DNA from: Favolaschia claudopus | Taxonomy: Eukaryota > Basidiomycota > Agaricomycetes > Agaricales > Mycenaceae | Reading direction: 5' to 3' | DNA: 64,000 nucleotides | Assembly (NCBI GenBank): GCA_037176885.1 | Contig: JAWWNJ010000056.1 | Coordinates: forward strand, 868,001 to 932,000 | Part shown: in pieces, positions 1,788-54,263 of the stretch | Position numbering within the stretch: the first letter of the stretch is position 1 | Layout: each line of letters starts with the position of its first letter | Translations under genes and position numbers: made by a program | Notes under the pieces: model-generated | What the model was told of the DNA's origin: nothing | The model's input: the letters and a program-made list of their open reading frames with translations, nothing else | Databases searched by the model: none

Positions 1788-1852
1788 AGGATCGTTCATT
1801 CGACTGGGCTTTGGTCTTCGTCGGGGCGATGAATCTTGAAGAGGGGGTGAGC

Positions 1853-2985: not shown

Positions 2986-4080
2986 ACGGCTGAGCATGAT
3001 CTACGCGATGAAAAATTATCACTCCTCGTCGGTAGGTTTGGGTGGAAAAATTTTCAGGAGGAAATGTGGGTGTTGTTGAGGAGCGGGAGAATGTACTGGC
3101 CGTAATCTGGGTCCAGCGGCAAGAGAAGACGGGACGGGTGGTAAGGTGTCAGCCTGGATGAGGAAGGAATGTGGAAATGGGTTTGAGATGCAGCAGTATG
3201 ACGGGCAGGAAGTCCGCAGGCAAATCGAAGGGGTGAAGCTGAATATGATGGGAGTGTAGTGGCGAAGGCAAATGAAGTGTGGTGAGAAGCATATGACATA
3301 TTCGGCTTTTGAGATCGTGGTCGCCAGTAGGTAAGTAAGTAGATAGATAGATTTGAGAAAGACGGCATAATGAAGAAAGCAGAAACAAATCGTTGACTTC
3401 GCCTCCTTCGGAAGTCAAGAAAACACTGAAGTGTAGACCAGCAGCGAATCAACCGCGCTCAATGTGAATAAGACAGGGACTTGAATCTCGCAAGTCGCTC
3501 TGGGAATGTGTCGTGAAAGCACAGCTTCCTCCTCAAGCATGCTCGGAATGCGTAGGAATAAATGGTAGCACGTGAACGTGCAGGTGCAGAACAAGGAGAC
3601 CTCGAGGACGTGAAGGGCAGCATCCGTGCAGCAGGGGCAGCTAAATGGCGAGACTGATTGGCATGTCTCACGCAGCGCTCCACAGCTGATAGCAAGAAGG
3701 AATATGGAAAGCGGAATGACTAGCGCATTTAAGCACGGCAAGTTGACGCGGATGGCCAAGGAACCGTGGCGACGTGCCGGTAGCGCCAGGTGTAGGCCAT
3801 GATACGAGAAGCAAGGCAGCGTTCAAAAACGCGCTCGCGACTCGAGCGATGGGGTTGGAGAGGACTGGTGAGGAGGTCGGCCACAAGAGTGTGCGAGACA
3901 GATAGCAGCCAGATCGAAGAAATCCTGGAAACAGTATCGTCTTCGTTGTGTTGTTGCTCCAGATCCCATCTCAGCCCCCCAGCGACAGCGCAATGAAGAG
4001 AAAAAAAATCGCAACAAAACTCGAGCCTCAGCAGCGTATCAAACGTCTCGAGATTGAAATGGAGCGCGTGAACGCGCAGT
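2986..4080. other. Unassigned stretch without recognised gene
   Basis: Only short overlapping ORFs occur, on both strands, with no recognisable domain. A small GTAA/GATA-type microsatellite lies near 3330-3352. I see no terminal repeats or RNA gene here. Confidence 0.4.
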
Positions 4081-7000
4081 ACTAGTAGCCGCACTCCCTG
4101 AATCCTCAACTCATTCCAGGAACCTCGGGGAGGGTGGCTCGCTCGGGGAAGAAGAAGATAAAGAGTCGAGGAAAAAGTCGGAAGTTTGGGGCGGGTACGG
4201 AATCCGATGAGTAGAAGCGAACAATTATATTGAAAGAACGAGCGAGCCTTTGGGGGAGGAGAAGAGGAGCGTGTCGGTGGTGGAAGATGGTGAAGCGTTC
4301 GGCGTATCGGATCCGAAACCCGATCCGCTGTGCCTCTCGATCTAAATCTTTCTCACAAAGTCTCGCTACAGTCCCTCCGACTTCCAATCAAATGCCGACG
4401 CTGGATCGCCCCTTTTTCAACGACGAACGACGGGTAGCACTAGCCATCCGGGCGATATGAATATGCCTCCCAGTCGCGAGGAATCTGGCTCGCTGAGCTG
4501 AGGATTCCGGTACGTCGCAGGATTGGTTTCCATCCCCTCCTCTGCTGACGCGGCTGAGGCAGACACTCATGGAACGAATCCTCACGAGGGACTTCCAGCG
4601 CCGAAAGCAGAACGTTCACTTCCGTGCTCAAATGACGTCCGTCCACCAAATCTTCACATCTTCCGCGTTCGCTCAAGCTCATTTCCGCCCCCCAATGAAG
4701 GAGGCGACGAGCGAACGACACACCTCATACGGGCAAAGCTGACGCGTTGAGCAGAAGAAGGCAATTGGCTCAGCACGATGAAATTGGTGGGAGGTTGAAA
4801 GGGAGGAACGCGCGAGGGGACAAGTAGATTGGAGGTACGTCATACGAATCTATATCCTGCGCCGAGTGCGCTAACAACGACTTGACAACGACTTGAAGTC
4901 GTGCGCTGCTCCCCAGGTTAGGCAGTTCCCCATCAAGTCCTCTTCCTCGCAGTCGCTGCCCCCCGACTCCGCTCGGCCGCGCTTCCCAAGCAAACCTGCT
5001 TGGGATTCGCCGCATGAAGATGGAGAGGTGGAAGCTGAGTGTTCAGGAAACTCAAGGTACGTCAATTCGTTTCACTTGATATTTCTCCCTTACAACGCGA
5101 CCTGTGCAGAAGCTACGCACGCAGGGGAGGAAAAACTATTGACTCCCGTGTGCTTTGCTTGTAGATTTCCATCCCCAACGACGCGCCACCAGCGGATTGG
5201 AAGACGTACAGCATTTTGTCGACGCTGCCCCCCACTCAACGGATGAAGGTACTGAACGATGGAATACGACGAGGGTGGCGGAACGTGAAAGGAAAAGCGC
5301 GTGGGAGTGACGAGAAAACGCGAGGTACATCACACAGATCTTCGTCTTTCACATTGGCTTCGCTGACGAGGGTTTGCAGCCAGGAGATATGTACCAAGTT
5401 TCCTTGTATTTTCGCATCCGGACACCTTGAATATCCCGTGTCCCTGAGCGCTTACGTTTAAAACGACGGAGGCATGCAGCTGAACCATCAGCGCTTCCTC
5501 ATACTCGCAACTCATCCCCAACACTACCATACCCAATCTGCCCCCACGTCCAAAGATTTCCGCAGCGCGTTGCCAGGTTAGTTCCCAGCACACCTTTATC
5601 CAATGATCCTCAGTGATCACCAGCAGCAACACGAAGGTGGAGGAAAGTGGTAATTGATGGAATATGTTAATGGCGGCGGAAGATCGTGAGGGAAGCGAGT
5701 GTCGTTTAAGAGGGCAGGCGAGCTTGAGGTACGCCGCACGAATCTACCTTTTCCTCTTATCTTGCTAACGAGAATCTCGAGAATGAGTACGCGGCAACGA
5801 GAGCATAGGACGGACGTCTGAGGCGTGCAGCCAGCCACCCAGCGCTTCCTCAGACGTGGACTCCATCCTTATCTCAGCTCACTCACTCCCAGCGTCCGTG
5901 AACCGTTGCATCTTGTGAACGCCCCCATGCGCAATCATTCAAGGCGCTCGACATCACGCGGTAACCGCCTTCCGTTGGCGACTCGGAGCAGCCGCTCTTC
6001 GCATATGTCGTTCGTTCAAAATCCATTCGCTCAACCAGAATCACACCAAGGTATGTCGCTGCTTTTCTTGACCTTCTGCTCCCTTCCGCTAATGCGACGT
6101 AGACAGAAGTCACGCCCGAAACGGAAGAAGGCTTGACAATGCGAGACGTGAGAGGGCGGTCGTAGGAAGGTTGCGATCGTGCGGAGAGGGGCATGCCAAG
6201 CGAGGAGTCTCTGGTACGTTGTAGTAATTTATATTCTGCGTTGTGTTTTGCCGACGACGATGACTTGAAGTCATGCGCCGCTCCCCATGGTACGCGTTCC
6301 CCACCAAGCCTTCTTTCTCAAGCACGATCGTTCGATTGCCCCCCATTGGTGACTCCGCGCGGCCGCGCTTCCCACGTAGACATGAATGGGATTCGCAGCA
6401 TGAAGTCGGATAGGGCGGTCGGCGGAAAGTGGTGCTAGTAGCCGGAGATTGTGTTGGGTCTCGGAGGGATGCGCGAGACGGCGGAACGCGATTGTAAGGA
6501 AGAGAACCCGTGAGTCATCGCCCATTCATAACGATTTCGCTAACGCAACTTTGAAGGGAGCAGCCTATGTACAATGTCTGTATCTAGCTTTCCAATCCGT
6601 CTCCATCTTCGCTGCCACAGACATTTCGATCCCAACCAACGGAGGCATGCTGCCAGACGCAAAGCGTCGGGGCTCGATGGGTACGCACAGCGTAGTCAGA
6701 ACTTCGGCGCGGTAACTCTCTGTACCGATGCAACACGAAACCACCGCTAGGTCGAACGTAGTCCAAGCAAAGTGGTGCGTGGTGATTTCTCGTTAGACGC
6801 CAGCGTACGAATCCGGTGGAGAACATTGAAGTAAAGAAGCAAGTACGAGACCGCGTTGAATGAAACCATCGCAGCCGCAAGCAGCATTCGGGGGTTGCCT
6901 GTCAAGCGCTAGCACATCAACGCATGCACCGAGTCTTGCGATGCCGCACGACGCCGTAGTGGAAGCGTCTTCAACAAACACTGAGATTGAAGGCTCTTGA

Positions 7001-23977: not shown

Positions 23978-24407
23978 TACGGTTGGCGGGAAGGCCGCGG
24001 TTGATTTTGATTTTCGATTTGTGTCATCGGACCTTCGGGTACTCGGCCGAGTGGCTGTACCAGCTCACCTCGTACACAAAACCAAGCGCCAATTTGCCAT
24101 GGTCATCATTTGGCCGAGGTTTGTGGTGTAGGTACATATGTATTGTATGAATAAATAATATCTTCCACCTCAAAAGCCGTTAGAACATCGAGGGATGTGA
24201 AATAACGAGCTTTGATGGGAAATCAGCGGGGCAACGCGATCACATGACTTCTTTGATTTGCCTTTTCTCTTCGTGTTTGACGACAACAAAGGCAGTCTGA
24301 TTTTTTCTGTGTGGACCTACATAGAGATAAAGGTCATTCAAGTTGTCTCTCCGACTTTCAGGCAAAAACAGCGAGGTTAGAGGAGAATTTGAACATTGAG
24401 TTGAATA

Positions 24408-25137
24408 CAGTCGTAAACTAGGAAGCGCAACGTAACGTAGAAGAGCAACATGCATATTCCGTACCCGCGGATATTTTGGCGAGATAGAATTTGCACTCTC
24501 CTACCATTTTTGAGGTCGCTGAATTCAATGAGCCACTTTTTGGAGCCTAAAAATTACTTCCCTGAGCAATGGAGCGCAATTTGTCGAAAATGCCCAATTT
24601 TGGAAGGAAGTTTGTGATTTCCCCATACCTTTGAACATCTCCATGGAAAATTTGGTGTCTAAAAAGTCCCCACAAACCATATTTCCCACCAGCAAAAAAA
24701 TTAGACTGAATAGCTTCTTTAAAGGACTAGAACTAGCTGGTTTGTTGCAAGTTTGTTGCTGATTTTTGATGTTTTCAGCTGAATTGTGAAATTTGCCTTG
24801 CAATATAAACACCACCTGGTGTTCCTGTGCATGCTTGATTTGTGGTATGATACTTGTAGGGCCTAAATATACATGCTCTATGTTGTCGCGACCTGCGGGA
24901 GGATTCTAGCTTTGTTTGCTGTTGTTGCTCTTCTACGTTATTTGGCCCATTTGGGTGGAGCCAAACTTTGGCCCTTGATCTCACTCAAAACAGACTGTAT
25001 CGACCCCGAATTTTTGACGAATCTGCAGAACCGATGCGGGGCTATTACCCTAGCACACAAAACTCAGAGTTTTGGTGCATTTTTCATCCAATAATCGGCG
25101 GGGAAAGCTAATCGTTGCGCTTCCTAGTTTACGACTG
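24408..25137. mobile_element. TA-type MITE (730 bp), family with 27317-28038
   Basis: Inverted ends CAGTCGTAAACTAGGAAGCG are flanked by TA on both sides (24406-07 and 25138-39). The interior is nearly the same as 27317-28038 read in reverse, with shared landmarks ACGTAGAAGAGCAACA and GGAAGCGCAACG. No transposase is encoded. It lies inside the left arm of copy A, so it is younger than that element. Confidence 0.9.
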
Positions 25138-25282
25138 TATGATGTGAATACAGAAATACGACCCAACTCAAGGCCGTTGCATGCCGCAGGTCTATGCTAA
25201 CCACCAAAGACTCTAATTTGCAGTTGAATACAGTAGTTTTATTTATAGGAAGCAGTTGAATGCCACAAATTCAGGCTAAATA

Positions 25283-26066
25283 CTACTCGGAATTGGAGCC
25301 ATTGTCTTCCTCATTGGCATCCAGCGCTTCAGGTTCTCGAAGGGGTTTAAGGGAAAGTAGTGCACATTTCTGAACGCATTCATGCTGATCCAGAAATGTT
25401 TGGATCCCTTTCTCGCCGTGGTCTCCGGCACCACTGCCTCTGAATTAATTATGAGAATTGGCAAGAGAATCAAGTCAAAGGAGCTTACCCAGTCGCTGTA
25501 TGAGACATGAGATCGAACAAAATAGCCGCTTGACTCTTTGGATCGTGACTTTCTGAGGCTGGAATTGGTAGGTGGATCAGTACATCTGTGCAGATACAGC
25601 GGCGTGAAAATATTAGACTTGCCTTGAATATCGGCCAGAACAAGAGTCTCATTTGAATACTAGAGATAGGTGAAATGCTGAAAAGCGTTGATAGTTGCGC
25701 CTTGCTTGTCAGAATAGCGCGGATGGTCCAAGGTTCTGGAATATTTTCGAAGTTCAACATCACCTCTCTCTCGCTCGAGAAGCCAAGTAATCGAGGAGAT
25801 AACTGCAGTACCGGAAGTAATTTCGTCTTTCTCCGCGTCGGAAAGAGTGAGGTAGTGAGATGAATCAACACCGGAAGCTGGAGAAGGTTCGAAGCGGTCG
25901 TTGACGCAGGCAGTGCCCTCTCGGGCGAGAATAAAGTCGGTAACTCTAAATTCTAGACAGTTCAATTGTAAGTAGTACTAAATTCGGAACAGGAAACTGA
26001 CCTGATATCTCAACGCCGTCGTTTTCGCATTCCTTGTTGAAATTGTCAAGGAAGAACTTGGCGCCA
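25283..26066 (-). pseudogene. Alpha-type protein kinase, C-terminal part (copy A)
   Basis: Minus-strand exons of an alpha-kinase (MHCK/eEF2-kinase fold), 5' truncated at the internal deletion. It reads FFLDNFNKEC, VTDFILAREG, SITWLLERERGDVELRKYSR and KQGATINAFQHF, then TLVLADIQG (catalytic-loop region), FDLMSHTATG, and GSGAGDHGEKGIQTF with a Cys/His-containing tail (DQHECVQKC), ending in an acidic C-terminus with TAG at 25283-25285. The nucleotide-binding VAKR region is lost. An in-frame TAG lies within HFTYL*YSNETL near 25660. One intron would begin GC (CAAG|GCAAGT) instead of GT. Family assignment is from the ADIQG and GxGxxG-type motifs. Copy B matches it exon by exon. Confidence 0.82.
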
Positions 26067-26552
26067 TCTCATTCCCGGAGATTTGATCCACAGGTAAGCT
26101 CTTCTATCTTCTCTTGAGCATGCAATGAGCTGACTGCGATTCTTAGGCATCTGTTTCGCTGGCTGTGGCCTCAAATCGTTCAGATTGGTCTGGACGAATT
26201 TGTCGACTACTTTAATAACCAGAAGACACGCAAGCAACCTGGACGACGTCTCCCATCACGTGTGGCACCGAATGTTGTATTTGATATGCCTCAAGATTAC
26301 GGCCTTGAAAATGTTGCTGTAGAGGTTACTCAAGACGCTATCGATGAGCTTCGAGCGCTAATCGAAACTCCTCGGGAGGAAGCTTTCCGCTGGGTGCCTG
26401 ATGAGTTTGCAGCCCTTGCATTCGAAGTTTATATCCATTTGGGCTCTCCGACAATTGAAGCATTGTCTGGATGGGCTATATTCAATGCTATGGCGCCTCG
26501 GATTCGTGAGCAGGTTGAAACTCAAGGCTTGTACGAGGCGATTTCTGTTTGA
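26064..26552 (+). pseudogene. DDE integrase, C-terminal part (copy A)
   Basis: Two exons (26064-26093 and 26147-26552) joined by a GTAAGC...TTAG intron, equivalent to the end of exon 6 and all of exon 7 of the copy B integrase. The last exon is 406 bp in both. It reads HLFRWLWPQIVQIGLDEFVD, NVVFDMPQDYGLENV and FRWVPDEFAALAFEVYIHL, ending GLYEAISV. The catalytic D, D and E residues lie upstream and are deleted, so this copy cannot be active. It is read divergently from the kinase remnant, with a GGCGCC word at the junction. Confidence 0.85.
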
Positions 26553-26922
26553 GTAGCATTATCTCTGTCCATACTTAAATTACCAAGCAGAACCTCGCTG
26601 TTTTTCGCTGTAAATGCGGCACAAGGCGCCTATATCTACCCCAGTCTGTTAACTGCTGCAATTTGAAGTCAGACTGGCTTCCCTCACGCATAACGCGGCG
26701 CAAAAGAAAATAATAATGGGTCATGGTCTAGTAAATCTGGGCTTTATTGAAAGGCTGAAGAAGCGCATTGTATGCTTCTCCGAGGAGACAATGCTTCAAA
26801 TTAGGCCATCTCGCCAGGATCGAGGGCCTCCTTGTCCAATTTCGCAATTTCGACCTCGCTGACCCGTTTCGCTTGCAGCGCACGATCACCGCGATGCCGA
26901 TGGTCTTCTCCTCCAGCCTATT
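26553..26922. other. Right arm of copy A and junction
   Basis: Up to about 26690 this is the remaining right inverted repeat of copy A. From there to 26922 the sequence leads into the multicopy gene, and only weak coding signal is seen. Confidence 0.4.
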
Positions 26923-41060: not shown

Positions 41061-41868
41061 CCTTTTTCCTCCAATATTTTCTTGCACTTACCTGAGGTAT
41101 TGAGCGGCAAAATTGAGCTCAGGACACCTAGGGTATGGGTCCGGCATATCTCGGAAATGCCCACAACATGGGCCCAAGTCCCGGCCGAGGGCTGCCGAGG
41201 TGGCAGTGCTGTGGCGGTGCGTTCCAAATGTGTAGACCATTTTTTTTTTTGAAAGATGCCGCACTTCGCCAAAAAAACGCGTTTGGCACACTTCAATAAA
41301 TTTGTCACACTCATGTCACACCCTTTTATATCTTTCCTCCCTTCGACTTTTTTAAGAAAACTCTTCATAGAATATCATCTACTGCCCTGTAGCTTGTATT
41401 TCTATGTAAAACTTTGACCCTAAGTGGCCTGTGGGTGACGGTATAAATGTGTGACAAATGTCACTGTGACTGCTGACATAAGGGTGCGAGCTTCCCACGC
41501 CCTCCATCTTACTGACATTACATTTTTGTTTCTCTATTGAGACATTATTGGGGGAGCTTGCTCCCCCTTTTATCAGAGCGGACACCAAATGGTGATGGGG
41601 CTGTGCTGGAGCGTATGATGGGTGTCGTAAATCAGAGGCTGCCGTGATAAAGACGCGTTCCGAGAACGATATCAGTGATGCGGTGCGATCCAGTGTAAGC
41701 CAGCCTGATCCAGCGTGATGGAAGGCTGATCCCGGTGATGCAACGCGGATTTTGACAGCTCGTCGAGTTTGCTGCTGCCTCGGACCACTCTCATCGGGGT
41801 TGCGGAACATGGGTTTAACCACGCCGAATTTTTTTCACTTCCACCTGCTTTTAGCTGTTCAAGGAGCG
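41061..41868. other. Unassigned flank left of copy B
   Basis: No recognised gene. It contains a T-run (about 41241-41251), a perfect hairpin GGGGGAGC/GCTCCCCC (41551-41568) and repeated TGATCC words near 41688-41740. The last six bases before copy B (GGAGCG, 41863-41868) are the target duplication. Confidence 0.4.
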
Positions 41869-42310
41869 TACGGTTGGCGGGAAGGCCGCGGTTTACTACG
41901 GTTGGCGGGAAGGCCGCGGTTGATTTTGATTTTTGATTCCTGTCATCAGCCGTTTCGGGAAGGTGCCCGAGTGGCTGTACCAGGTCACCCCGCACACAAA
42001 ATCCAGTGTCAGTTTGCCATGGGCGCGTTGGTGCTTGAGGTAATAGTATAAATTTCTTAGTACTGCGCCAATACATCTTATTTGTTACCCCAAATAATGA
42101 CCCAATGCAAGGAGGATGTAAATAATCAACTTTGATCGGAAGTCAGGCTCTCATTCACGATCACATGACATCAGAAATTCGGGTCTCTGGTTGAGGACTG
42201 GCGAGGACAAGGCCAGTCTGATATTTTTTGGACGTGATTTCACGTAGCATACAGTCCAAAGGATATCTAATATCATTCTCAGGGAAAAACAGCGAGGTCT
42301 GGTGGAGAAA
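41869..42310. repeat. Left terminal inverted repeat of copy B
   Basis: It starts TACGGTTGGCGGG, and the first about 28 bp are tandemly duplicated (second copy from about 41897). Landmarks shared with the right arm and with copy A are CGAGTGGCTGTACCAG, ACAAAA, ATCACATGAC, CAGTCTGAT and AAAACAGCGAG. Confidence 0.75.
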
Positions 42311-42330
42311 CACAATTATTGAGTAGGTAT

Positions 42331-43948
42331 TCAAACAAGAAGTGCTTCATACAGGCCGTGTAATTCGACTTGTGCCCGAATTAGAGGAGCCATTGCGTTA
42401 AATACTGCCCAGCCATTCAGCGCCTCCAATTTAGGAGATCCTAGCTCGTGATACACCTCAAATGCAAGACCATTGAATAAGTCAGGTACCCAGCGAAGAG
42501 CTTCGCTGCGTGGGGCATCAATCAAACCACGAAGCGCGTCTATTGCTTCTTGGGCAACTGGAACGGCAAGGTTCTCAAGGCCATAGTCTTGAGGCATATC
42601 AAAGACAACGTTGGGAGCCACACCCGAGGGAAGAATCCGACCCGGTTGTTTGCGAGTCTTCTGATTGTTGAAATAATCCAAAAACTCGTCCAGACCAACT
42701 TGGACTATCTTGGACCAAAGCCAGCGAAATAGATGCCTTGAGTAGGGTTAGAGAACTGATACAGGTTAAGCAAGAAGTATCACCTATGAATTAAATTTCC
42801 CGGGATGAGATGGATACGTCCCTCTTCAAGAATCTCTCGAAGGCTGCGGCCATTGAAGTTGCGGTCAAATGACCAGGCAGACTCAATAGAGATGTTACTT
42901 GAACTCTTGACAGAGACAGTAGGCGGCCAGTCGGCCATACTGAGTCGCGGAGCAAACTCTTGCCTGTTCGGAATAAATTAATAAGTAATGTGGAAATGAG
43001 TTGACACACCGTAGTGTTGTCTGGAATGCAGCAAGCCAGCCAAGCTCGCTTCCACCGTCAAACGTGACTTGAACTGAGACTGCTGCAGAGATATCACGTA
43101 TAAGATACTTGTAAAATAATCAACCGGTTACAGTGATAGGGAGGGTACCTTTGTACTCAGTGACCATGTCCAAAAAGACATGCCCAATTGTGTCGCTAAG
43201 CCGAGCGTTCGGGACAACTACCAGCCAAAGAATCTTCCCAACATGATCCCGTGCTCCGTAAACATCAATCCCGATTCCATTGCCCATTTTCAGCCCCTTC
43301 TCCCCAAGTTTTTCATGGCCGTCAACGTGGATCTCTTGAAATATCCCAATAGCATCGAGCGCACCGCGCTTCTTGGGTCCGGTACGACGGCCAGGACGGC
43401 GCATATCCGAAGGTCCCTGGCCGACAAGGGCATGCATGGTACTGCGAACGAAATCTCTGGAACAGACACGTCAATTCAAATTCATGAAAAGAGTTGAAAA
43501 CTTTGAAACATACCGAGGAATGATGAGGTTCAGGCGCAATGAGGCGATCTTCTTGACAGTGTCGGGTCCTTGGCCTTGATTGACATCACGAGAAATAATG
43601 TTGGCAATGGCTGCAGTAGCCTCTTCAACGGCGCGAAATTTGCGTACACTTGGGACCTCGAATTTGTTGTTCAATTGTTTCAACTTGGTTTTACTGCAGG
43701 ATATATTGGCGATGTTGAATAAGTAGAGTAGATAAAGATAACTGACCCAATCTTGATCCCATGGCGTTCTTCCAAGTAGCGAAGACGAACAGCAAGTGAC
43801 AATGATCGGCGCTGGAAGTCGTGCAAAATTTCTCGGAGCTCCTCATCCGGGGGAACTAAATTTATTTAGAGGAGAACAACAGTGAAGTTTAGATAAAAGG
43901 CATACGAACTCCGTTGTTCACACCGTTTGCGCCGGTAGGATTAACCAT
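42331..43948 (-). CDS. DDE integrase/transposase, seven exons, intact frame
   Basis: Exons (minus) 43948-43924, 43855-43747, 43693-43514, 43456-43149, 43082-43010, 42963-42784 and 42736-42331 sum to 1281 nt, giving 426 codons and a stop with no interruption. All introns are 39-71 nt with GT...AG ends. The N-terminal 105 residues are helical, HTH-like (DEELREILHDFQRRSLSLAV, LRYLEERHG). The catalytic core has D at about 150 (EIHVDGHEKL), D at about 216 (QVTFDGGSELG) and E at about 259 (NISIESAW), i.e. a DDE triad spaced D-66-D-42-E. The C-terminus (NVVFDMPQDYGLEN...RWVPDLFNGLAFEVY) is shared with copy A and with a mushroom 'integrase core' family. It would cut and join the element ends in the nucleus. 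The kinase gene diverges from it about 830 bp away. Confidence 0.88.
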
Positions 43949-44775
43949 GGAGAGGAGGGTGAACTCGAAGAGGAGATTGAACTTGATGCTTCGTCGAAGG
44001 CAAGAGCTTTTAAATAGGTGTCCGGGAATTATCTGGCTCACCGTATAATCGACATATACTCAGCTATTTCGATTTTATTCCCACTCTACGAAGTAAGAAC
44101 AGACTTGGAAGTCCCGAGTCACTGAGGTCAAACAATAGCATAATTGTTTCGTGATTATTGCCCTGTGAAACTACCAAGTCAGTTGAATGATTGTGCCAAT
44201 CTGTTCTCACACTTTTCCTCTGGTTCAAATTGCACCGGGAAATCTATGAGTCAGTGTAAGAGCCAGCGTGGAAACCACTCGAGTCGAACTTGAATCAACA
44301 CAACGAATCAACTACAGTACGGATCACATTCACACGGTTCATCAATCCTTGCGCCAACTCATTCTCATAGTTAGGTTATATTATAAATTATACTGGGATA
44401 TACTGGAGTCATTTCGGACTTTGAGCTGAAAGTAGTACTGTGCCGGAGCGAGGCGCGGGAAACACCCGAGTCACTGTCTAGTCAACTCTGACTCGGGTTG
44501 AACAAGTGCGGATCATACTCCCACGGTTCATCAACCTTTTTGTGTCCTCCGATTCGGAAAGCCGGAATTGTGCGTACTCATTCACGACTCATTCTCTCAC
44601 AGCCAAGTAATTCTTTTGTGCTAATTTTCTGAACCCTCGATCGGACCTCGATCACGGTGCTCGAAGTGAATCAACTCAGAGAGCTCTGTTATATTTAAGC
44701 GACAGGTTAGTGCGTTATATTCCCTACTTTCTTTTCAAGTTCTCCCTATCTTCTATTCTCTTCTCTCTGCTATTC
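43949..44775. promoter_or_regulatory. Shared bidirectional upstream region with repeated motifs
   Basis: The only non-coding segment between the divergent integrase and kinase starts, so it must serve both. It holds two direct copies of a word like GCGGATCA...CACGGTTCATCAA (about 44330 and 44508) and several CCGAGTCA/TGACTCGG words (44116, 44278, 44469 and 44488, the last inverted). An ATTATAAATTATA stretch lies at about 44380. The kinase is preceded by TATATTTAAG at about 44691. Function as regulatory sites is inferred from position and repetition. Confidence 0.5.
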
Positions 44776-46099
44776 ATGTCCGAAGTCAATCCAACCGCTC
44801 AATGCTTCGGTGGTGAAGATGCCTGTCTCACCCATTTCGAGTACAAAGCCAGTGCTGGACGTTGTCACAAATGCTGTCTTCTCGCGAATAGCCCGCAGTC
44901 GGAGCACCAAAGAATTATGGTTCGTCTCGTCAAGAATTGTGTATCTCTCATGTTATTTAACTCATAACTCCATACAGGACATTCCACAGTGTCAAGGGTG
45001 TGGCAATATCTCGACCCGACTCGCAACTGAATTCTGTAATGCGTGCGAGCAGAAGAATGGTTTGTTTTCTCTCTCTGTATCTTTGAAACTACAGCCATAT
45101 TCTGACTCTCTTTGATCACGCTTGTCTATTTGTTCCACAGCCAAGCAACAGGGGCCGGTCACTGTGCCTTCGACTGCTCCATCGAATTTACCTCTTGCCC
45201 CAACCACTGCGTCAAATTTACGAAGTCAGTCTCCAATTAATCTTCACTCATTTCACTGCTAAATTGTACAATACAGTTCGAAACGCCGGCCAATTCCATC
45301 GTGCGAACTGGAAGGAGGCCGCAAGCTTCAACAATTCGAACATCAAAGCTCAACAATCTTCGCTGGCGATCACTAAATCTAATATGGCTGCTCTTCGGAA
45401 CAATAATCTGGCAACAACTGAATGTTACTCAGTCGTTTTCGAGCCTTATATCAACTCAAAGCCTTGTGATTATCTTCCGACCTTCGATGTTACTCGCGAG
45501 GCAACACTTAAACTGTCAGGTGTGTTCATTTCAATTTAGATTTGCATGCTGTTATAAATTAATCCTTCGCACTTCAGACCTCACGGATATGGCGGTCGTC
45601 TGCTATAACTCCAGCTGGGAGGAAGGCGCTGAAGCCGGACTCGACCGGTATGTTGTTCAGTACTAATATTGTGAGCAGCAACTGCATCAGCAATACCTGG
45701 GCCGGCTACGTAGCGCTGCGTAGCGCTCTGTAGCTCCGGTAGACCCTGTAGAGCCTGTAGACAAGGGTCCACTTCATGTAGAGCCTCGTAGATCCGCGGA
45801 TTCTGTGTAGTGCTTGCTGTGTAGAATCTCTGTAGAACGCTGTAGACTCCTGTAGAATTTGCTCAACAGCGCCAAAAAAAATTGAAATCCATTTTCCAGA
45901 TTCCAGCCAAAGAGAAGTAATGAGGGACAAATATATATATTGCTACGACATAAAGGTACACTGTATGGATAAATGGCACAGCGCAAAACTCACCCAGCGA
46001 CCCAAAAAGAAAATGAGCAAGCTGTCCGAATCAAACGGGCAAGAGAGCTTACCGTCTCGATGTACAAGCATGACTGCACGGGAGGTAAAAAATACAGAG

Positions 46100-46970
46100 C
46101 TTGAGATCGGCCTAACTCTGGGTAGATTTGTGAGCGTAAGAAGGAGATAATACAGCAAAAGACTTACTCGGAATTCTCTTCAATCGATCAGTTAACCCCT
46201 GCGATTCGAGAACACATTAGTATTTAGTTCCAACGGTAAATGACAACCCACTAATCAGCAGCATAAATACAAGTGAGCAGAGCGGCGACGTTAAACCTAA
46301 TGGAAATACACTCACCCACCATATGTAGCAGATACTTAGCAAAGAACCGTTATAATGAAGGACAAAGCAAACTTACCACATAGAGCGACGGAGGCCAGAG
46401 CAGAGGTGCCAATAAATAATGAAAGATGGAGTATTTGATAGATCGAGACGGGTGGAGGAGAGGGTGGAGGAGACTGACGTAGTGGCTGCTGAACATACTG
46501 GTCATTCAGGTGTTCATCCGCCCCAAACACAGACACAGCGGGGGGACGATCTTGGATAGAGAGAAATGATAAGAAACAGACATGAATATGCCGCAGAAAC
46601 CTACCATCCTGTACCTAACCAAAGGCAACCTCGGATTGTGTATGGAGATAGAGGAAACCAGAAACTAAAAGGGCAGCTATTGAGACAAGTAAGATGAGGA
46701 GGAGATAGACGTACACAGGGACTGATGCCTAACCCGAACCTAACCCTTGTTCCCTGCCCACTGCAGCAGGCTCGTCGATACTAGCGATATCTGGCGTCAA
46801 CGCGACGAAGAGGCATAGAAGAGAGTATATAGAGAGGAGAGAAGCCTGCGGAAGAACGTCGGCTGGGATAACGGACAGCATGGAGGACGACGTTGGGTGG
46901 AGATGGTGGAAGTAGACGAAGAGAAGGGAGAACAAATATTTGTTCCGAACCAAAGAAGTGTTTGTGACTT
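46100..46970 (-). other. Possible small membrane-protein gene (weak)
   Basis: On the minus strand several intron-like breaks (GTAAGTTTGC, GTAGGTTTCT, GTACGTCT/CAG types) separate short hydrophobic segments: LFSLLFVYFHHLHP, LLLILLVSIAALLVSGFLYL and LHLSLFIGTSALASVALCG, plus a proline-rich loop (SPPPSPPPVS). This could be a three-helix membrane protein carried by the surrounding element. The exon joins leave stops in some frames and I do not recognise a family, so no CDS is claimed. Confidence 0.25.
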
Positions 46971-46990
46971 GTCACTGATTCGCGGACTTA

Positions 46991-47741
46991 CAGCGCTTTT
47001 AGATTCTATGCGGAAAACGTAAAAAATTCTCAGGGTGGCTGTGCAGGACCCGGGAACTCCTCGCTTAGTTTCTCTCCACCCCTACTTACCGTCTTTCTCG
47101 CCATATCATGAACAGTATCCCGGTAGTCTTCCAAGATAGACTTCCCGGCAACACACCCCGCCCACTTTTTGGATCGAAGCGTACGAAATTCCGCAAGAAC
47201 TCGCCACTCGGAGGAGATTCTGGAAGTTTTGAATACGACTCATGGAGGCCCATGTACGTCGTTCTGCATGGCTAGTTATGCTTCGTATCGTCGCGGATGC
47301 CCATTGGAATCTCCCCTGCTCCATCTAACACTTTGTTACGGCTTCGAGGGGGAGTCTTTCCTGGGGTACTGTCGGATGCTACCCAGGCGGCCCACTCCCA
47401 AGCCTTCCATCACGCCTGGGGATGGTCATTCAAGTGTGCAGTGGTGACCAGATACATTCAAGCATAATTTTTGTCGTCCTTTCTCGCCGCTGGGACTCCA
47501 ACAGTAGAAGACAGCGGACCCATACTCTCCACGATCAGAGGAGACATCGGCCGAGGGAAACTGTTAGAGAAGGTTCCACATAGCATACAGAGTACTAGTA
47601 CACCCATTAGAATAGTGAATGAAGCCCATATCCTTCGCAGCACCGTCGAGAAACCAAGGCCGGCCTCCCCAGGGGTTCCCGGGTCCTGCACAGCCACCCT
47701 GAGAATTTTTTACGTTTTCCGCATAGAATCTAAAAGCGCTG
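46991..47741. mobile_element. TA-type MITE with about 67-bp perfect inverted ends (751 bp)
   Basis: The ends CAGCGCTTTTAGATTCTATG and their reverse complement pair perfectly through ACCCGGGAAC (about 67 bp). TA flanks both sides (46989-90 and 47742-43). The long perfect arms suggest recent activity. The interior ORFs (for example 47169-47447 plus) show no known transposase. Confidence 0.92.
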
Positions 47742-48803
47742 TAAAGAAATTTTCTTCAAGTCACTCACTCGACTACCGTCACCACCACCTCGACTGTCTC
47801 CCTCTCGCTCTCATTTCCGTGTGCGCCGACGATTCCGTCCCCAATTCCATCAAGAGGATCTCCCACAGCGACACCCCCACCCGCCGATTCTCCTTCCCAT
47901 TCACCTGTTTCCCCGCCTTCACTCCCACACGCCTCAATCCCGCCGTATCACTCGAAACCCCGCCACTACGCATCCTCCTCACCTTCCCACCCCCACCTCT
48001 ACTCGCCAACGCGTCGGGAACGACCCCATCGACGACGAAAGCACGTCCGCGCCCCCGTTTTTATTATTTCCGCTAACGACCTCTTTCAGCGAGTACGCGT
48101 CACCTCCACTCTCTGCTCCTTTCCGCAACATCACGCCGTCTCTTCTGCACCCCCTCGCCGACCCGAGCCGACTGTCCCTTTGCCCCGCTGCCGCCTACAT
48201 CCATTTACAGAGAAGTACATAGGTGTGTGCCGCCCTTCCTTCGTCTTTCCGCACTCTACTAGCAATACTTCCCCGCGCATTACTTGCGTCCCCTTCCCCG
48301 TGTGTCAAATGATTCCCCTCCCGCCTCTCCTCACACTGCGCCGCCGCCTGAACTCCACGCCACTCCACATCCTGATGACATTGATTTCCCCGACACGCAC
48401 GAATGGCGGCGCCAAATCTTTTCCGGGAACTCCACCGACGCTGCCATGGCAAGACCCTTCGTATTGCCTCGTCCTGCCGCCTCGTTGCCCGCATCCCGCA
48501 CTCCCAAAACTCGCCGCCTAACTGCATCACCGTCGGCTCATCGTTTCGACGTGACCGCTTCGTATGGTAAGAGTTCCCGTCACAATGAATCAAATCATAA
48601 ACCAAACTTACACTCTTTAAATCAGTGACCGCGCCGCCGGCGCCAAACGTCTCCGCGACTCGTTTGACCGTGTAGGCGGAACTGCGAAAGGTCGAAGCGA
48701 TGAAAATGAATACTTACCTTGACAACAAATCAGACGCAAATGTCCCGCCGGCTGCGCCTGAATTCGTCTGAACGCAACTCCGGAACTACAAGATCAAGTC
48801 AGG
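47742..48803 (+). other. Proline-rich reading frames, unrecognised
   Basis: Plus-strand frames at 47821-48222 and 48284-48628 are C-rich and encode proline/serine/threonine-rich protein with intron-like breaks (GTACATAGG...ACTAG near 48216-48262, GTAAGAGTTC near 48565). It may be a decayed gene carried by the element at 45688-52202. I recognise no domain. Confidence 0.3.
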
Positions 48804-49005
48804 TGTGACGGAAGCGAGAGGGAGTCGAGTTCCGGCACAAGGGGATCAACAAAGAACTGGTGTAAGTACTAAATTGACCAAGGGAAAAGCTACTACGACA
48901 AGAACTAAACTACTTATACAGGAAAATCGAGGCTGTGTACATGGAGTCATGGGGACGAAACGGGCAGATCTCGCCGTGAGCGGATGCGAACGCCGATCCG
49001 TCACA
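48804..49005 (-). repeat. 3' LTR of the Gag-only element
   Basis: 202 bp with inverted tips TGTGACGG/CCGTCACA, matching 51564-51765. Read on the plus strand (antisense to Gag) it contains a textbook intron, GTAAGTACTAAATT to AACTAAAC...TTATACAG (48863-48922). Confidence 0.92.
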
Positions 49006-49182
49006 TCCGCCCTCCAGATCGTCGACCACGACGAGCTCAATCTTCGACACAAAAATCAATAAATCTTGTTCAAAATCAATTCAACGTTCGAAATGGTCTT
49101 CGAAAAATCAAAATCAAACCATTTGGGTATCCTCGCCCTCCTCGACGAACATTTCGATGTCGAGGGAAGAAATCGTGCGAAT

Positions 49183-51468
49183 TTAGAAGTGTTCAAGAAC
49201 TTCCGTGCTCTCCAAAAGAGCATCGCGATCAGTCGTCATTGCGAAATCAACAGCATGGGACGCAAATCCAGGAGGTTTGCCTTTGGAAACCATTGTGTTC
49301 AATTCAGGACAGTTGCGGGAAAGGTGTCCATGCACCCCGCAATTAAAGCACAAGCCGGCCGCAAGGTATTCACTCCGCTTCTTGGCAGACAAATGGCCGC
49401 CATTGTCACGAGATTTCGACTTGGGAGGTTCGGGTTCAGCACTGGAAACCGAGATAACGCGCCCTCCGGTACGACGTTTCTCGTTCACATCTGTTTCCAA
49501 TTTGGGTTCATCGGGTCTGAATTGAGTCTTACTCGATTCAGCCATATCAATTTCATCGTTATCGTCGTCAACCTTGACGATAATTTCAGCGCTCTCTGCA
49601 CCAGCAGTAACTTCATCCCAAGAGGAGGTCTCTGGATCAAGTTTATCCCGAAACATTTCCTTGCGTATGTCGGCGTTGAGGCTACGCCAGAACATGACCA
49701 CCTTCTCTTGGTTGGCTTCAAGACCAATGGTGTTATAAATTCGCTCCCATTCGGCCTTGTGAATTAACACTGGCTTGGTGCCTTGAAGGCAAGAACTCAA
49801 TCGAGTGCGTTGCTTCTCACGGAAGTTCACAGGGAAACAGAAATTGAATAAACCCCAAAAGAATTCACTCAAAGTCCAAACATGCTCGTCGTTCTCAACT
49901 TTACTGTTGTAGAATTCCAGTGCACGAGCCGTCAAGTAGTACGACAAGTAAAACACTCGTTGGTCGGTTGGAACTTTTCCGAGTTGAACATAATTCGATC
50001 CTTCCTTGACGAATCGATGGAATGCAATGGCATCCGGTGAGCCATCGTATTCCTTTGGAGGGATAGGCTTGAGAATCATTTTATCCTTCCTACGAGAATT
50101 CCGGCTCTTCTTAGAGGAACGGCGCTTGCGCCGATGACGCGACGGGTGTGACTTCCCGGAACCTGAACCATCCGAAGGCTCAGAGTCTGAGCTCGACGAA
50201 TCAGATGGGTCGGATGGGGTGGGTGAACCATCTACGCGCTCGGCATTGCGCAACGTACGCTCTATAAAGCTGCCTGGCGCGACGCGTGCAGCAGGAGTGG
50301 GATCAGGACGGAATCCGCGAGCTCCGTGATCCGCACCGATCTGTCTATCAATGCTGTTTTTAACAGCAGTCTGTGCCCTGGTTAAGTTAACCTTAGGCGT
50401 TATCGTCCGAGAACGTTGCAAGCTGCTGATCTGCGCTTGCAGATCAGCAATCTTTTCATCTACACTCTGGCCAGAGTTAATTGAATCTTTCATCGGCTTG
50501 AGCAATGATCTCGGAGTTCGAGGTTCGGTCCGTTCAGAAGCCAATGTGATTGGCATTTGATCAAAGAACCCAGGTGGCGGTGAAAGCTGTTCTTCTTTGA
50601 CAGCACGGCGAATTTCGGCGAAATTCTCAAGAGCGGTTCTTTGCGCGTCGATATCGCGCTCAGAGAAATCTTCCGAGAGGTTAGCTGCACCCCAGTTGCG
50701 AGGGTCAGCACCTTTACCTTTCTGGCGGGAGGTTCCAACACCAGAAGGTATGGCCGGACTGACAATAGTTTCAGGCACATTCACTGCCGATCTATCATCA
50801 ATATCTATCAAGTTCGTGTTCTCATCAAGGGGCGGGATCTTACGCGGGATAGTTACCCCGCGCCCCGACGCAGCAGCCAAAGCTTCCTGGGCCAAAGCTT
50901 GATGGCGGCGAGCAACACTCACAAGCACGTCAACACTCATATTCTGAATCGCACGCGAGACGGTGGATGTGGAACGGGATATAACATCATTTACTACGGT
51001 ACGAGAACCCATAGTATTCTGACGACGGGGCGTTGCCATGTGAGACATAGCAACACCCTCGTCGAGCATCCCCCAATCTACGGCAGAGGTCAATACAGGC
51101 CCATAGAGCTCGGTATGCGTCGAGGGTATCGACGATGAGGTCTCGTTGCCCAGAGGCAACGGTTCGACGCCCGAGGGCGAAGCGGTCTCACCACCCGAAG
51201 GTGATGGGGTCTCGCTGCCCGAAGGCAGCGGTGTATCTACACGAGGGGAAGGTCTTCCACCCGAGACCGCCTGACTGTATGAGAAGTCAGGGGAAACGGG
51301 GCGTGATTTTGTCGAGGAGGCACGACTCTCCGGTCGGGGAGTCCCAGAGCGCGGACTCGCGGTGTTGGCAGCACTAGCAGGTCTTCCAGTCGACGCAGGC
51401 AGTCCGGGGACGGCTTGGTGAGCGTGAGAGCGAAGCGGGTAACGAGCGCGGCCAGCAGGATCAGTCAT
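49183..51468 (-). CDS. Gypsy-type Gag polyprotein, 761 residues
   Basis: Long uninterrupted minus-strand frame. The N-terminal 300 residues are disordered, with Ser/Thr/Pro/Glu repeats (SGSETPSPSGGETASPSGVE). A coiled stretch (SVDEKIADLQAQISSLQRS) and an arginine-rich acidic/basic linker (RHRRKRRSSKKSRNSRRKDK) follow. The retrotransposon-gag capsid domain occupies about 455-620 (EYDGSPDAIAFHRFVKEG, SYYLTARALEFYNSKV, RTRLSSCLQGTKPV, MFWRSLNADIRKEMF). A CCHC zinc knuckle (CFNCGVHGHLSRNC) lies about 50 residues from the end. It would form the particle that packages element RNA. The frame ends with EVLEHF*, with no Pol after it. The length is larger than most Gag proteins because of the N-terminal extension. 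The frame shows no damage, in keeping with the matching LTRs. Confidence 0.93.
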   Translation of the reverse strand: MTDPAGRARYPLRSHAHQAVPGLPASTGRPASAANTASPRSGTPRPESRASSTKSRPVSPDFSYSQAVSGGRPSPRVDTPLPSGSETPSPSGGETASPSGVEPLPLGNETSSSIPSTHTELYGPVLTSAVDWGMLDEGVAMSHMATPRRQNTMGSRTVVNDVISRSTSTVSRAIQNMSVDVLVSVARRHQALAQEALAAASGRGVTIPRKIPPLDENTNLIDIDDRSAVNVPETIVSPAIPSGVGTSRQKGKGADPRNWGAANLSEDFSERDIDAQRTALENFAEIRRAVKEEQLSPPPGFFDQMPITLASERTEPRTPRSLLKPMKDSINSGQSVDEKIADLQAQISSLQRSRTITPKVNLTRAQTAVKNSIDRQIGADHGARGFRPDPTPAARVAPGSFIERTLRNAERVDGSPTPSDPSDSSSSDSEPSDGSGSGKSHPSRHRRKRRSSKKSRNSRRKDKMILKPIPPKEYDGSPDAIAFHRFVKEGSNYVQLGKVPTDQRVFYLSYYLTARALEFYNSKVENDEHVWTLSEFFWGLFNFCFPVNFREKQRTRLSSCLQGTKPVLIHKAEWERIYNTIGLEANQEKVVMFWRSLNADIRKEMFRDKLDPETSSWDEVTAGAESAEIIVKVDDDNDEIDMAESSKTQFRPDEPKLETDVNEKRRTGGRVISVSSAEPEPPKSKSRDNGGHLSAKKRSEYLAAGLCFNCGVHGHLSRNCPELNTMVSKGKPPGFASHAVDFAMTTDRDALLESTEVLEHF

Positions 51469-51563
51469 CGGGGTCGGTGTCGAGCTCAGAGGGGTCAGAG
51501 AAGGTCGGGGGAAGGCGTAGTCAAGAGCGTCGACAGTCTAGAGACTTGGTTCAGTTCAAAAGA

Positions 51564-51765
51564 TGTGACGGAAGCGAGAGGGAGTCGAGTTCCGGCACAA
51601 GGGGATCAACAAAGAACTGGTGTAAGTACTAAATTGACCAAGGGAAAAGCTACTACGACAAGAACTAAACTACTTATACAGGAAAATCGAGGCTGTGTAC
51701 ATGGAGTCATGGGGACGAAACGGGCAGATCTCGCCGTGAGCGGATGCGAACGCCGATCCGTCACA
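51564..51765 (-). repeat. 5' LTR of the Gag-only element
   Basis: Appears identical to 48804-49005. It is followed on the right by TCAGG, the target duplication. The same antisense intron-like sequence lies at 51623-51682. Confidence 0.92.
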
Positions 51766-53849
51766 TCAGGCTGGGGAACGAGGTAAGTATGTACATCGGA
51801 AGCACACGCCTTGTTTTGTAGTTACCTTGAAATAAACCAATGTTTTGTACTGAGTAAAATGGAAAATACTGTGAGTCTGAGTTTGTGTTTGAATGAAACA
51901 GAGCAAATGAAGGAGACGCATAAAACACACGCATTGAAGTCCTTGCCGCTTTTGCCAGCTTTTGCCGCTATTAGGTGCCGCTAGATCAGTCACGGAGGCA
52001 CGGAGCCACAATGCCGCCAGCCGTTCCTAAACCGCAACAAGGCTGCATATTCCGGCGACTCTACGGAGAACTAAACGGCCGCCCCAATTCTACAGACTTC
52101 TACAGAGATCTATGCAGAAGCCGCGGATCTACACACGGCTACGTAACTCGGCCTGGATCTACAGCCCCTACCGGCTTCTACGGCAAAAACCAGGGATTGC
52201 TGATGTGATTGACAAATAGTCGGGACATACGTCTGTCACGGCTGAATAATGCTCACATAGATATTCAACCGCACTCCACCCTTCACGATATCTTTCAGAG
52301 TGTTCTCAAGGACTGTGGTCAAAGTCCCGAGAAGACTGTCCCTGCCAAATTTCGCAGTCGGAAGCTCTTGACACTCTATCTTGAAGCCCATATTGATCTT
52401 AATAAGGTACGATTCATCTTGTGATGTTCAATGTTTGCAAAATATTTATGTTGGCCAAGTTTTATGATAGAACTGGAGTCGAGCCGCCCGCAAACGTAAT
52501 GAAGGCAAGCAAACGACCTTGGAAGAACAGTGTTTCTGGTGGATCAGTTTTCAAGCGCAGTCGACTTTGTGCGTCACCGTAAATTTCAATTTGAACCAAC
52601 AGTTGCTGATGTGATTCACAGTCTCTGGAGGGTCTCATGTGTTGAAGTCTCAGTTCCTCCTCAATGCTGCTTCGACTCCAGAGCCTCCCTCGACTGCAGT
52701 CACTCTTTTCTTCGCAACACAGACATCTGATGTAACTACTGGACTTCAGTCCTTCAGCTGGACAGTCGGGGATTGTGTCCCCAATTCTGGTACTCTTGCG
52801 AATGGCCCCATCAACAAAGGAAAATCGAAGCTTGTGTTCAAAGTACGTCTTATTTAATGAGCTAAAAACCAACGGTGTTGCTAAAACTGTGGCGGCAGCT
52901 TTCTTTGAATGGTGTTGCATATGTTGCAAAGCGTTGCTATACCCTCGGAGACGGATCTCCTGTCTCTATTCTCGCCAATAGAGACCAACTCGTCAAGGAA
53001 GGTGTCACCCTTGGTCGGGCTGAATTTTTCCTCAACCATTTCAACTCCGAATGTGCGTATGAAGCGGTAGAAATTGCAGGTAATCGGGCACCTTCTACAG
53101 ATTAACCGTTGGCTCAGTTCCTGTTTTATTAGGCTTCGATGTTACGGACTTTCTCATTGCTCGGGAGGGTGTTGCTAGTTTGGCGGAATCTTTTGTCCCG
53201 TCCCCAGCATCCGGCATCACCTCCACAGATTATTCCAGTCTGACACCGGCAGAGAAAGATGAACTTACTACAGACAGTAATACTATATCTTCGATTACCT
53301 GGCTGCTAGAGAGGGAGCGAGGGGATGTTCAGCTGCGCAAGTACTCTGGTACTCTTGATCACCCCAAATACTCTGACAAGCAGGGTGCGACTATCAACGC
53401 ATTCCAACATTTTGTCTATTTGTGGTTCTGGCAGATATACAGGGTGCGTTGAATTCCCAGCTTCGGAGTTTGAACAGATCTAATGCTCTTTCCATAGCAT
53501 CAGAAAGTCACAGTCGTCTGATTCAGATTGCTGTCTTGTTTGATCTTATGTCTCACACAGCCAACCGGTGCGTACCATAAACATGTCTATAATTTATTTT
53601 TGATTCGCTTCAGCGAGAGTGGGGCTGGAGACCACGGTGATTTGGGAATCAAGACCTTTGTCAATCAACATGAATGCGTCCAGAAATGTGTTGCATTGAA
53701 TCAGAGGCTCTCAAGACACCAGAGAACGAGGAGGATGCTCAGGAGGAGGAAGAGTCTGGCTAAATTTACTATATCCCGGATGGCATTCAACTGCCGCCTG
53801 AATTTACCTTCGTATTCAACATACTTGCAGTAAATAAATGTGCTACAAC

Positions 53850-54257
53850 TTGCAAAACTCGCTGTTTTTTGGCGGGAATCGTGTCAGAGATTATCTTGAT
53901 CATTATGAACGTGAAACTACCTCAAACAGTTGTCAGACTGTTTTTGTCTCGCCGCAAAGCGAAGCATTAGAGGGACAACTGCCGAGTCATGTGATCGCGT
54001 TAGGCGGCCGTGATACGATCAAAACTTATTTTTTCACTCCCTTATGCATTTAAGCAAGTTTTTATATGATAGATATTGCTCACTACTATAACAGCAGCAT
54101 ATATACACTACTTATCTTAGCACCAAAGCGCCCATGGCAAATCGGCACTGGGTTTTGTGTGCGAGGTGACCTGGTACAGCCACTCGGGCACCTTCCCGAA
54201 ACGGCTGATGACAGGAATCAAATGTCGAAACCAACCGCGGCCTTCCCGCCAACCGTA
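53850..54257. repeat. Right terminal inverted repeat of copy B
   Basis: Reverse-oriented counterpart of 41869-42310, with landmarks ACTCGCTGTTTTTTGG (53856), AGTCATGTGATCGCG (53986), CTGGTACAGCCACTCG (54172) and CGCGGCCTTCCCGCCAACCGTA (split here only by notation) ending at 54257, then GGAGCG. Confidence 0.75.
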
Positions 54258-54263
54258 GGAGCG

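What the first reader, a model, noticed from the sequence alone, without database searches (positions are those of the whole stretch)
41869..54257. DNA transposon carrying a divergent DDE integrase and alpha-type protein kinase
Seen: inverted repeats starting TACGGTTGGCGGG, a GGAGCG duplication on both sides, a seven-exon integrase that adds up to exactly 427 codons with D-66-D-42-E, and an alpha-kinase diverging from a shared 830-bp region. Copy A (23978-26700) has the same ends and the same two genes. Known: 6-bp duplications are usual for Polintons and integrase-type elements, but those carry polymerase and capsid genes. An integrase element whose only partner is a protein kinase is not one I know described. 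Inference: the kinase may regulate the transposase or the host response, and elements like this may explain the alpha-kinase expansions of mushroom genomes.
Basis: partly seen in the sequence, partly recalled or inferred. Interest (0 to 1): 0.92.

Follow-up and report, generated by a model that had tools for sequence, protein, structure and literature searches.

The report
Jumping gene carrying a kinase
A mushroom genome carries a jumping gene that holds, besides the enzyme that moves it, a second gene for an unusual protein kinase; the pairing has been mentioned in print for rust fungi, and here it appears to be old, common and kept by natural selection in this group of elements.

Summary
Window 41869-54257 is a DNA transposon in Favolaschia claudopus with about 140-bp inverted repeats and a perfect 6-bp duplication (GGAGCG); unfilled target sites occur elsewhere in the genome. 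The seven-exon integrase (432 codons, D-65-D-42-E) equals the NCBI model. An alpha-kinase gene diverges from it across 827 bp. Corrections: this copy's kinase is broken and a nested 6.5-kb insertion sits in its intron 4; copy A is an internally deleted relic without its right end; and the pairing is in print: Kojima 2025 (PMC12730594, passages read) reports transposase and alpha-kinase in opposite orientation in TET+ IS3EU elements, with 6-bp TSDs and TAYGG..CCRTA ends in rusts. New here: 36 of 65 related integrase loci have a kinase match within 13 kb (33 head-to-head; 0.8 expected), 43 when 11 misses are read directly, against 0 of 141 other rva_4 loci. All 6 two-ended elements with most of the integrase hold kinase sequence. 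Kinase dN/dS is 0.07-0.31, and its distances track the integrase's (r 0.81). Most likely an IS3EU transposon whose kinase is a selected component acting in trans; substrate unknown.

The parts
41863..41868 (.). left copy of the 6-bp target site duplication GGAGCG
   Evidence: unfilled sites
41869..42035 (+). left terminal inverted repeat; the outermost 28 bp (41869-41896) is a near-exact tandem copy of the tip, the 140-nt arm starts at 41896/41897
42331..43948 (-). integrase-type transposase gene, 7 exons: 43906-43948, 43747-43855, 43514-43693, 43149-43456, 43010-43082, 42784-42963, 42331-42736; 432 aa, D156 D222 E265
43949..44775 (.). 827-bp intergenic region between the two divergent start codons (shared promoter inferred); no frame of 60 aa or more inside
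44776..53761 (+). alpha-kinase gene, 11 modelled exons: 44776-44919, 44978-45059, 45226-45519, 45578-45647, 52220-52406, 52460-52568, 52622-52842, 52899-53079, 53133-53424, 53469-53567, 53614-53761; frame broken near 53425 (ADIQ motif lost), so a pseudogene in this copy
45685..52205 (.). nested 6,521-bp insertion in kinase intron 4, ends CATCAGCAAT..ATTGCTGATG, 2-bp duplication TG; not part of the original element
   Evidence: by comparison with L017
48804..51765 (-). LTR retrotransposon nested inside that insertion: identical LTRs, TSD TCAGG, one 784-aa frame with a zinc knuckle (49186-51537)
54119..54257 (-). right terminal inverted repeat
54258..54263 (.). right copy of the target site duplication GGAGCG
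23978..26725 (.). copy A: relic of the C50 subfamily (about 98%), left TIR present, kinase remnant (-) joined to integrase remnant (+), 730-bp insertion at 24408-25137, right 266 bp with the TIR missing

Best explanation
It is a two-gene cut-and-paste DNA transposon of the IS3EU kind (integrase-like DDE transposase, TACGG..CCGTA ends, 6-bp target duplication). The transposase binds the inverted repeats, excises the element and joins it to target cuts staggered by 6 bp. The head-to-head alpha-kinase gene is a regular, selected component of this clade, not a chance passenger; it most likely acts in trans by phosphorylating the transposase or a host protein so as to permit or protect transposition. 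Shown: anatomy, target duplications, unfilled sites, open frames for both genes in another copy, recurrence across lineages, dN/dS below 1, correlated divergence. Inferred: cut-and-paste mobility, the shared promoter, and the kinase's role and substrate. The window copy is a decayed instance: intact transposase frame, broken kinase. The confidence given is for the identity and for the kinase as a selected part; for a direct role of the kinase in transposition alone I would say about 0.4.
For: Perfect 6-bp TSDs in 9 of 27 two-ended elements, all of different sequence. Unfilled sites: for the window 6 loci match over 241 of 241 nt at 95% across the junction; for the C118 copy 40 listed matches at 96-100%, 38 over all 300 nt. 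Seven-exon model identical to the NCBI protein. AlphaFold model, pLDDT 82.8, matches TnsB, Mu, IstA and HIV integrase structures (13 with E <= 0.001, best 1.6e-5). 36 of 65 integrase loci have a kinase match within 13 kb, 33 head-to-head, 0.84 expected; 7 of 11 misses that were read also have one; 0 of 141 other rva_4 loci. Inward-facing TIR within 8 kb: 22 of 132 kinase and 18 of 65 integrase loci, outward control 1 and 1. All 6 two-ended elements with most of the integrase hold kinase sequence; all 10 with both are head-to-head (C50). Kinase dN/dS 0.21 at dS 0.13. Mantel r 0.81, p 0.0002, 9 Mycena pairs. Kinase hallmarks. Ends and TSD as in Kojima 2025.
Against: 29 of 65 integrase loci had no kinase in the search; of 11 of these read, 4 (L025, L026, L042, L043) show none in the stretch held. 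14 of 27 two-ended elements have four or fewer matching TSD bases. P0001 itself hits no Pfam family. The fold matches have low TM-scores over the whole chain (0.15-0.34). The kinase structure prediction failed (pLDDT 31.7). No Repbase IS3EU protein was at hand for a tree. No expression or transposition data. dN/dS values carry no test against 1 and rest on few changes or saturated dS. Three distant-lineage elements have 7-8 bp duplications, and one of them has both genes on the same strand.
Confidence: 0.82

Rival explanations
1. The kinase is a passenger, captured once and carried along without benefit to the element.
For: The window kinase is broken while its integrase is intact; several derivatives keep only integrase remnants (8 of 27); 141 other rva_4 integrase loci have no kinase nearby.
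Against: dN/dS below 1 between kinase copies and between subfamilies (no formal test); present in three deeply separate integrase lineages with different TIRs; catalytic residues conserved; distances track those of the integrase.
Confidence: 0.15
2. A special form of the best explanation: the kinase protects the element against host silencing, as proposed for the TET/JBP dioxygenases found between the same two genes in TET+ IS3EU elements.
For: Same gene neighbourhood in TET+ IS3EU (PMC12730594 passages), where the TET enzyme is thought to counter methylation-based silencing.
Against: No substrate or phenotype known; nothing here points to silencing in particular.
Confidence: 0.3
3. A Polinton, Ginger, KDZ or other integrase-type element rather than IS3EU.
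For: Integrase-like fold shared by several of these; distant-lineage copies have 7-8 bp duplications.
Against: In L017 the two genes fill 738-5458 of an element at 301-5955, leaving no room for polymerase or capsid genes; TACGG ends with 6-bp TSD do not fit Ginger (4 bp) or KDZ (8 bp), both recalled.
Confidence: 0.04
4. Two unrelated genes side by side by chance in repeat-rich DNA.
For: None found beyond the repeat-rich setting.
Against: 36 of 65 against 0.84 expected under uniform placement, and 0 of 141 in the comparison set; both genes lie inside shared TIRs with TSDs.
Confidence: 0.01

Closest known systems
TET+ IS3EU DNA transposons of rust fungi and Tuber indicum, with transposase, TET/JBP and alpha-kinase (Kojima 2025, PMC12730594; passages, outline and figure legends seen)
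   Same: 6-bp TSD, TIR over 30 bp, ends TAYGG..CCRTA (stated for the rust families), transposase and alpha-kinase in opposite orientation
   Different: No TET/JBP gene found between the two here; host is an Agaricomycete (Mycenaceae). The passages speak of TET+ families and do not treat the kinase's generality or selection
IS3EU/GingerRoot superfamily (Kojima 2023, PMC10045372; passages seen)
   Same: TA..TA termini, TSD usually 6 bp, integrase-like transposase without an HHCC motif
   Different: The passages seen do not mention a kinase
Alpha-kinases (MHCK A, eEF2K, TRPM7)
   Same: Invariant Lys, DIQ motif, glycine loop, HxCxxxC site; profile matches MHCK A (3pdt, E 2.4e-7) and eEF2K (E 0.0028)
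   Different: Own cysteine-rich N-terminal region in 13 of 18 relatives, GAGDHG where MHCK A has GLGNLG, carried by a transposon
TnsB, MuA and IstA transposases, retroviral integrases
   Same: RNase H-like DDE fold by Foldseek
   Different: Identity 10-16%, low whole-chain TM-scores, no relevant PDB sequence hit

Membership tests
IS3EU | TA..TA termini (TAYGG..CCRTA in the rust families) | tested here: met
   TACGGTTGGCGGG at both ends; TACGGTAGGCGGG in L049 and L051; L050 ends TACGAAG, so TA but not TAYGG
IS3EU | 6-bp target site duplication | tested here: met
   Window and 8 others of 27 two-ended elements perfect, 4 more five of six; unfilled sites. Distant-lineage L049 7 bp and L051 8 bp, L050 7 bp
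IS3EU | TIR longer than 30 bp | tested here: met
   140 nt at 93%
IS3EU | Integrase-like DDE transposase without an HHCC motif | tested here: met
   D156, D222, E265, and no cysteine before D156 (sequence); fold search; 16 of 27 aligned relatives hit rva_4 integrase core, P0001 itself not
IS3EU | Transposase groups with Repbase IS3EU in a tree | not testable with these tools
   No Repbase proteins held
IS3EU with alpha-kinase (Kojima 2025) | Transposase and alpha-kinase in opposite orientation in one element | tested here: met
   10 of 10 two-ended elements holding both (C50); 33 of 36 loci genome-wide
IS3EU with alpha-kinase (Kojima 2025) | TET/JBP gene between the two (TET+ families) | tested here: not met
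   Gaps of 827 bp (window), 815 (L017) and 825 (L036) hold no frame of 60 aa; L037 (1713 bp) and C50 (3222 bp): 10 of 30 frames of 60 aa or more scanned, no TET. A genome-wide PF12851 search did not complete
Alpha-kinase family | Catalytic Lys, DIQ, glycine loop, zinc-binding H and C | tested here: met
   YVAK 18 and ADIQ 18 of 18 relatives, GAGDHG 17, HxCxxxC 17; PF02816 E 1.3e-23 in P0121; PDB profile hit. Window copy itself: broken at ADIQ
Polinton/Maverick | Polymerase B and capsid genes, 15-20 kb (recalled) | tested here: not met
   L017 is 5,655 bp and filled by the two genes
Ginger1/Ginger2 | 4-bp TSD, TGT..ACA ends (recalled) | tested here: not met

The most novel reading that the evidence does not exclude
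The alpha-kinase is an obligate, co-evolving second component of one clade of IS3EU transposons across mushrooms, rusts and truffles, needed in trans for transposition or for escape from silencing. Repeated element invasions and later escape of their kinases would be a main source of the alpha-kinase expansions in mushroom and rust genomes.
Probability: 0.35. Interest if true: 0.75.

Novelty: new member of a known kind. Interest (0 to 1): 0.5.

Why it matters
A transposon that brings its own signalling enzyme is unusual, and the kinase's substrate would show how an element steers its host. The counts here turn a passing remark in print into a testable claim: one integrase clade keeps a kinase with signs of selection, while other rva_4 integrases in the same genome have none nearby. 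If kinases escape from such elements, they would help explain why alpha-kinase genes are so numerous in some fungi.

Tried and rejected
Pfam on the integrase gave nothing; the family link comes through relatives with PF24764. A PDB sequence search with the integrase profile gave one irrelevant hit at E 0.99. The kinase structure prediction failed and was not used. The C9 pair of 13-mers (L009) was dropped as a TIR element: the match lies in an exon of another kinase within an inverted duplication. Papers: searched alpha-kinase with IS3EU, with transposase and basidiomycete, and with transposon and mushroom; only PMC12730594 came up. Searches were broader or on neighbouring questions; most of their listings were not opened. 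That the wider survey is not in print rests on these searches of an open-access library only.

Limits. The genome search scores only the best candidates (97 of 487 for the integrase, 150 of 229 for PF02816, 150 of 692 for PF24764), so counts are lower bounds. Of 189 PF24764 matches 150 were listed and used (141 loci); 0 found against 1.8 expected is not by itself a depletion, the contrast with 36 of 65 is the point. Of 105 exact 13-mers 100 were listed and used. The assembly shows 86.8% of BUSCOs duplicated (PMC10905254, part 1 of 2 of the text read), so locus counts probably include alleles. dS above about 1 is saturated; one pair (I36-I15) gave no usable dS; the window-kinase value (0.80) is inflated by its broken tail; K49 and K50 are weak models. 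The L036 kinase model uses a shifted splice between exons 5 and 6. Contig-length sharing in Mycena (11 of 29 kinase hits on 10 contigs) shows linkage on contigs, not adjacency; 74 of 120 listed integrase hits (P0001-P0074) were entered. The Mantel set holds near-duplicate pairs (P0009/P0011, P0030/P0033), which raise r; with two Favolaschia pairs r is 0.74, with a distant one 0.90.
Full report
WHAT IS THERE. The window lies in a 264.6-Mb genome, inferred to be Favolaschia claudopus (Mycenaceae): the integrase rebuilt from it is identical over 432 residues to NCBI R3P38DRAFT_3573378, and the published genome is 265 Mbp (PMC10905254, part 1 of 2 of the text read). The element runs from 41869 to 54257 between two copies of GGAGCG, with arms of 140 nt at 93%. 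The outermost 28 bp on the left is a near-exact tandem copy of the tip.

THE GENES. D156, D222 and E265 leave 65 and 42 residues between. An AlphaFold model (pLDDT 82.8) resembles TnsB, Mu and IstA transposases and HIV integrase (13 matches with E <= 0.001, best 1.6e-5, but whole-chain TM-scores of only 0.15-0.34), although sequence searches do not find them. The kinase starts 827 bp away and reads to the right in eleven modelled exons. In L017 it is open over 611 aa; in L036 both kinase (612 aa) and integrase (432 aa) are open. In the window the kinase loses its frame at the ADIQ motif, and a 6,521-bp insertion, itself holding an LTR element with one zinc-knuckle frame, sits in intron 4. Among 18 kinase relatives YVAK and ADIQ are in 18, GAGDHG and HxCxxxC in 17, and the N-terminal cysteine motif HKC in 13. 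P0121 matches PF02816 (1.3e-23); the profile matches MHCK A (2.4e-7).

IS IT MOBILE DNA. Of 27 elements with both ends (26, plus C50), 9 have a perfect 6-bp TSD, all of different sequence, 4 have five of six, and 14 have four or fewer. Joined flanks find unfilled sites: for the window 6 loci align over 241 of 241 nt at 95%, others at 91-93%; for the C118 copy 40 listed matches at 96-100%, 38 over all 300 nt. Both sites lie in repeated DNA, so these are probably paralogous sites rather than alleles.

THE PAIRING. By content, 10 of the 27 hold both genes or their remnants, all 10 head-to-head; 8 hold integrase remnants only, 1 kinase only, 8 neither (C50). The 6 with most of the integrase (window, L017, L036, L037, L039, C50) all hold kinase sequence. 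Genome-wide, 36 of 65 integrase loci have a PF02816 match within 13 kb, 33 head-to-head and 3 on the same strand, with 0.84 expected under uniform placement. Of the 29 misses 11 were read: 7 do have kinase sequence, head-to-head (window, L033, L034, L038, L044, L045, L046), 4 do not in the stretch held (L025, L026, L042, L043). That makes 43 of 65. For comparison, 0 of 141 other rva_4 loci have one, 1.8 expected. Inward-facing 13-mers lie within 8 kb of 22 of 132 kinase and 18 of 65 integrase loci, outward-facing of 1 and 1; that 22 includes the C9 pair and C3:607526, later dropped. Seen from the kinase, 36 of 132 loci have an integrase partner and 9 more a TIR; 86 have neither. One of these 86 was read over 10 kb and had neither; three more were seen only in short stretches.

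AGE AND SELECTION. More distant integrases (33-50% by exon) at C61 and C110 sit in elements of 5.1 and 6.0 kb with TACGGTAGGCGGGATGGTCG at both ends, 20 of 20, and a head-to-head kinase; their duplications are 7 and 8 bp. A third lineage at C31 (about 30%) ends in TACGAAGCGCGG, has a 7-bp duplication and both genes on one strand. Kinase dN/dS is 0.21 at dS 0.13 and 0.29-0.31 between closer copies with few changes; between subfamilies it is 0.065 and 0.12 with saturated dS. The integrase gives 0.04-0.28 over five usable pairs. No test against 1 was made. Shared descent of whole elements is the simplest reading.

WHAT IS KNOWN. Kojima 2025 (PMC12730594; passages, outline and figure legends seen) describes TET+ IS3EU in rusts with 6-bp TSDs and TAYGG..CCRTA ends and says that all TET+ IS3EU families hold TET/JBP between transposase and alpha-kinase, which lie in opposite orientation; a TET+ IS3EU family is also reported from Tuber indicum. 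Kojima 2023 (PMC10045372, passages) gives TA..TA termini and usually 6-bp TSDs. The element here meets the tested features except the TET gene: three gaps are too short, and in the two longer gaps 10 of 30 frames were scanned without a TET hit. It is a new member of a known kind. The rust alpha-kinase expansion is on record (PMC4469406, one passage).

MECHANISM. Transposition by an integrase-like transposase on the repeats, with joining staggered by 6 bp, follows from the anatomy and is not shown by experiment. The kinase's retention with dN/dS below 1 suggests that it matters to the element; whether it acts on the transposase, on silencing or on another host process is open. I favour action in trans on the transposase or a host factor, about 0.4 for a direct role in transposition, with anti-silencing the strongest single alternative form.

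Noticed in passing
window 45685-52205: Nested 6.5-kb insertion with ends CATCAGCAAT..ATTGCTGATG and a 2-bp duplication TG, not identified.
   Followed up: partly
window 48804-51765: LTR retrotransposon with identical LTRs, TSD TCAGG and one 784-aa zinc-knuckle frame seen; apparently a recent insertion.
   Followed up: partly
window 46988-47744: Element-like stretch with 74-nt inverted arms at 99%, inside the nested insertion.
   Followed up: no
window 41869-41924: 28-bp near-exact tandem copy of the transposon tip; the outer copy adjoins the TSD, which may mean that a short end can serve.
   Followed up: no
L009 (C9:2196110-2198026): Inverted duplication of another alpha-kinase gene whose exon contains the 13-mer TACGGTTGGCGGG by chance; L008 shows the same exon.
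   Followed up: partly
L050 607-5925 (C31): Third lineage with 33-nt perfect TIR, 7-bp duplication, and kinase and integrase on the same strand.
   Followed up: partly
P0011/P0134 and P0009/P0137: Integrase 99% and kinase 95% identical between Mycena galericulata and M. leptocephala: a lead for horizontal transfer.
   Followed up: no
L024: TIR-bounded 9.2-kb copy with reverse transcriptase-like and recombinase-like frames, judged by eye only; probably a nested retroelement.
   Followed up: no
own genome: At least 141 other rva_4 integrase loci without a neighbouring alpha-kinase match: a second abundant group.
   Followed up: partly
P0149, Mycena sanguinolenta: Predicted protein with an alpha-kinase part and PF18759, perhaps a kinase joined to another transposon's gene.
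   Followed up: no
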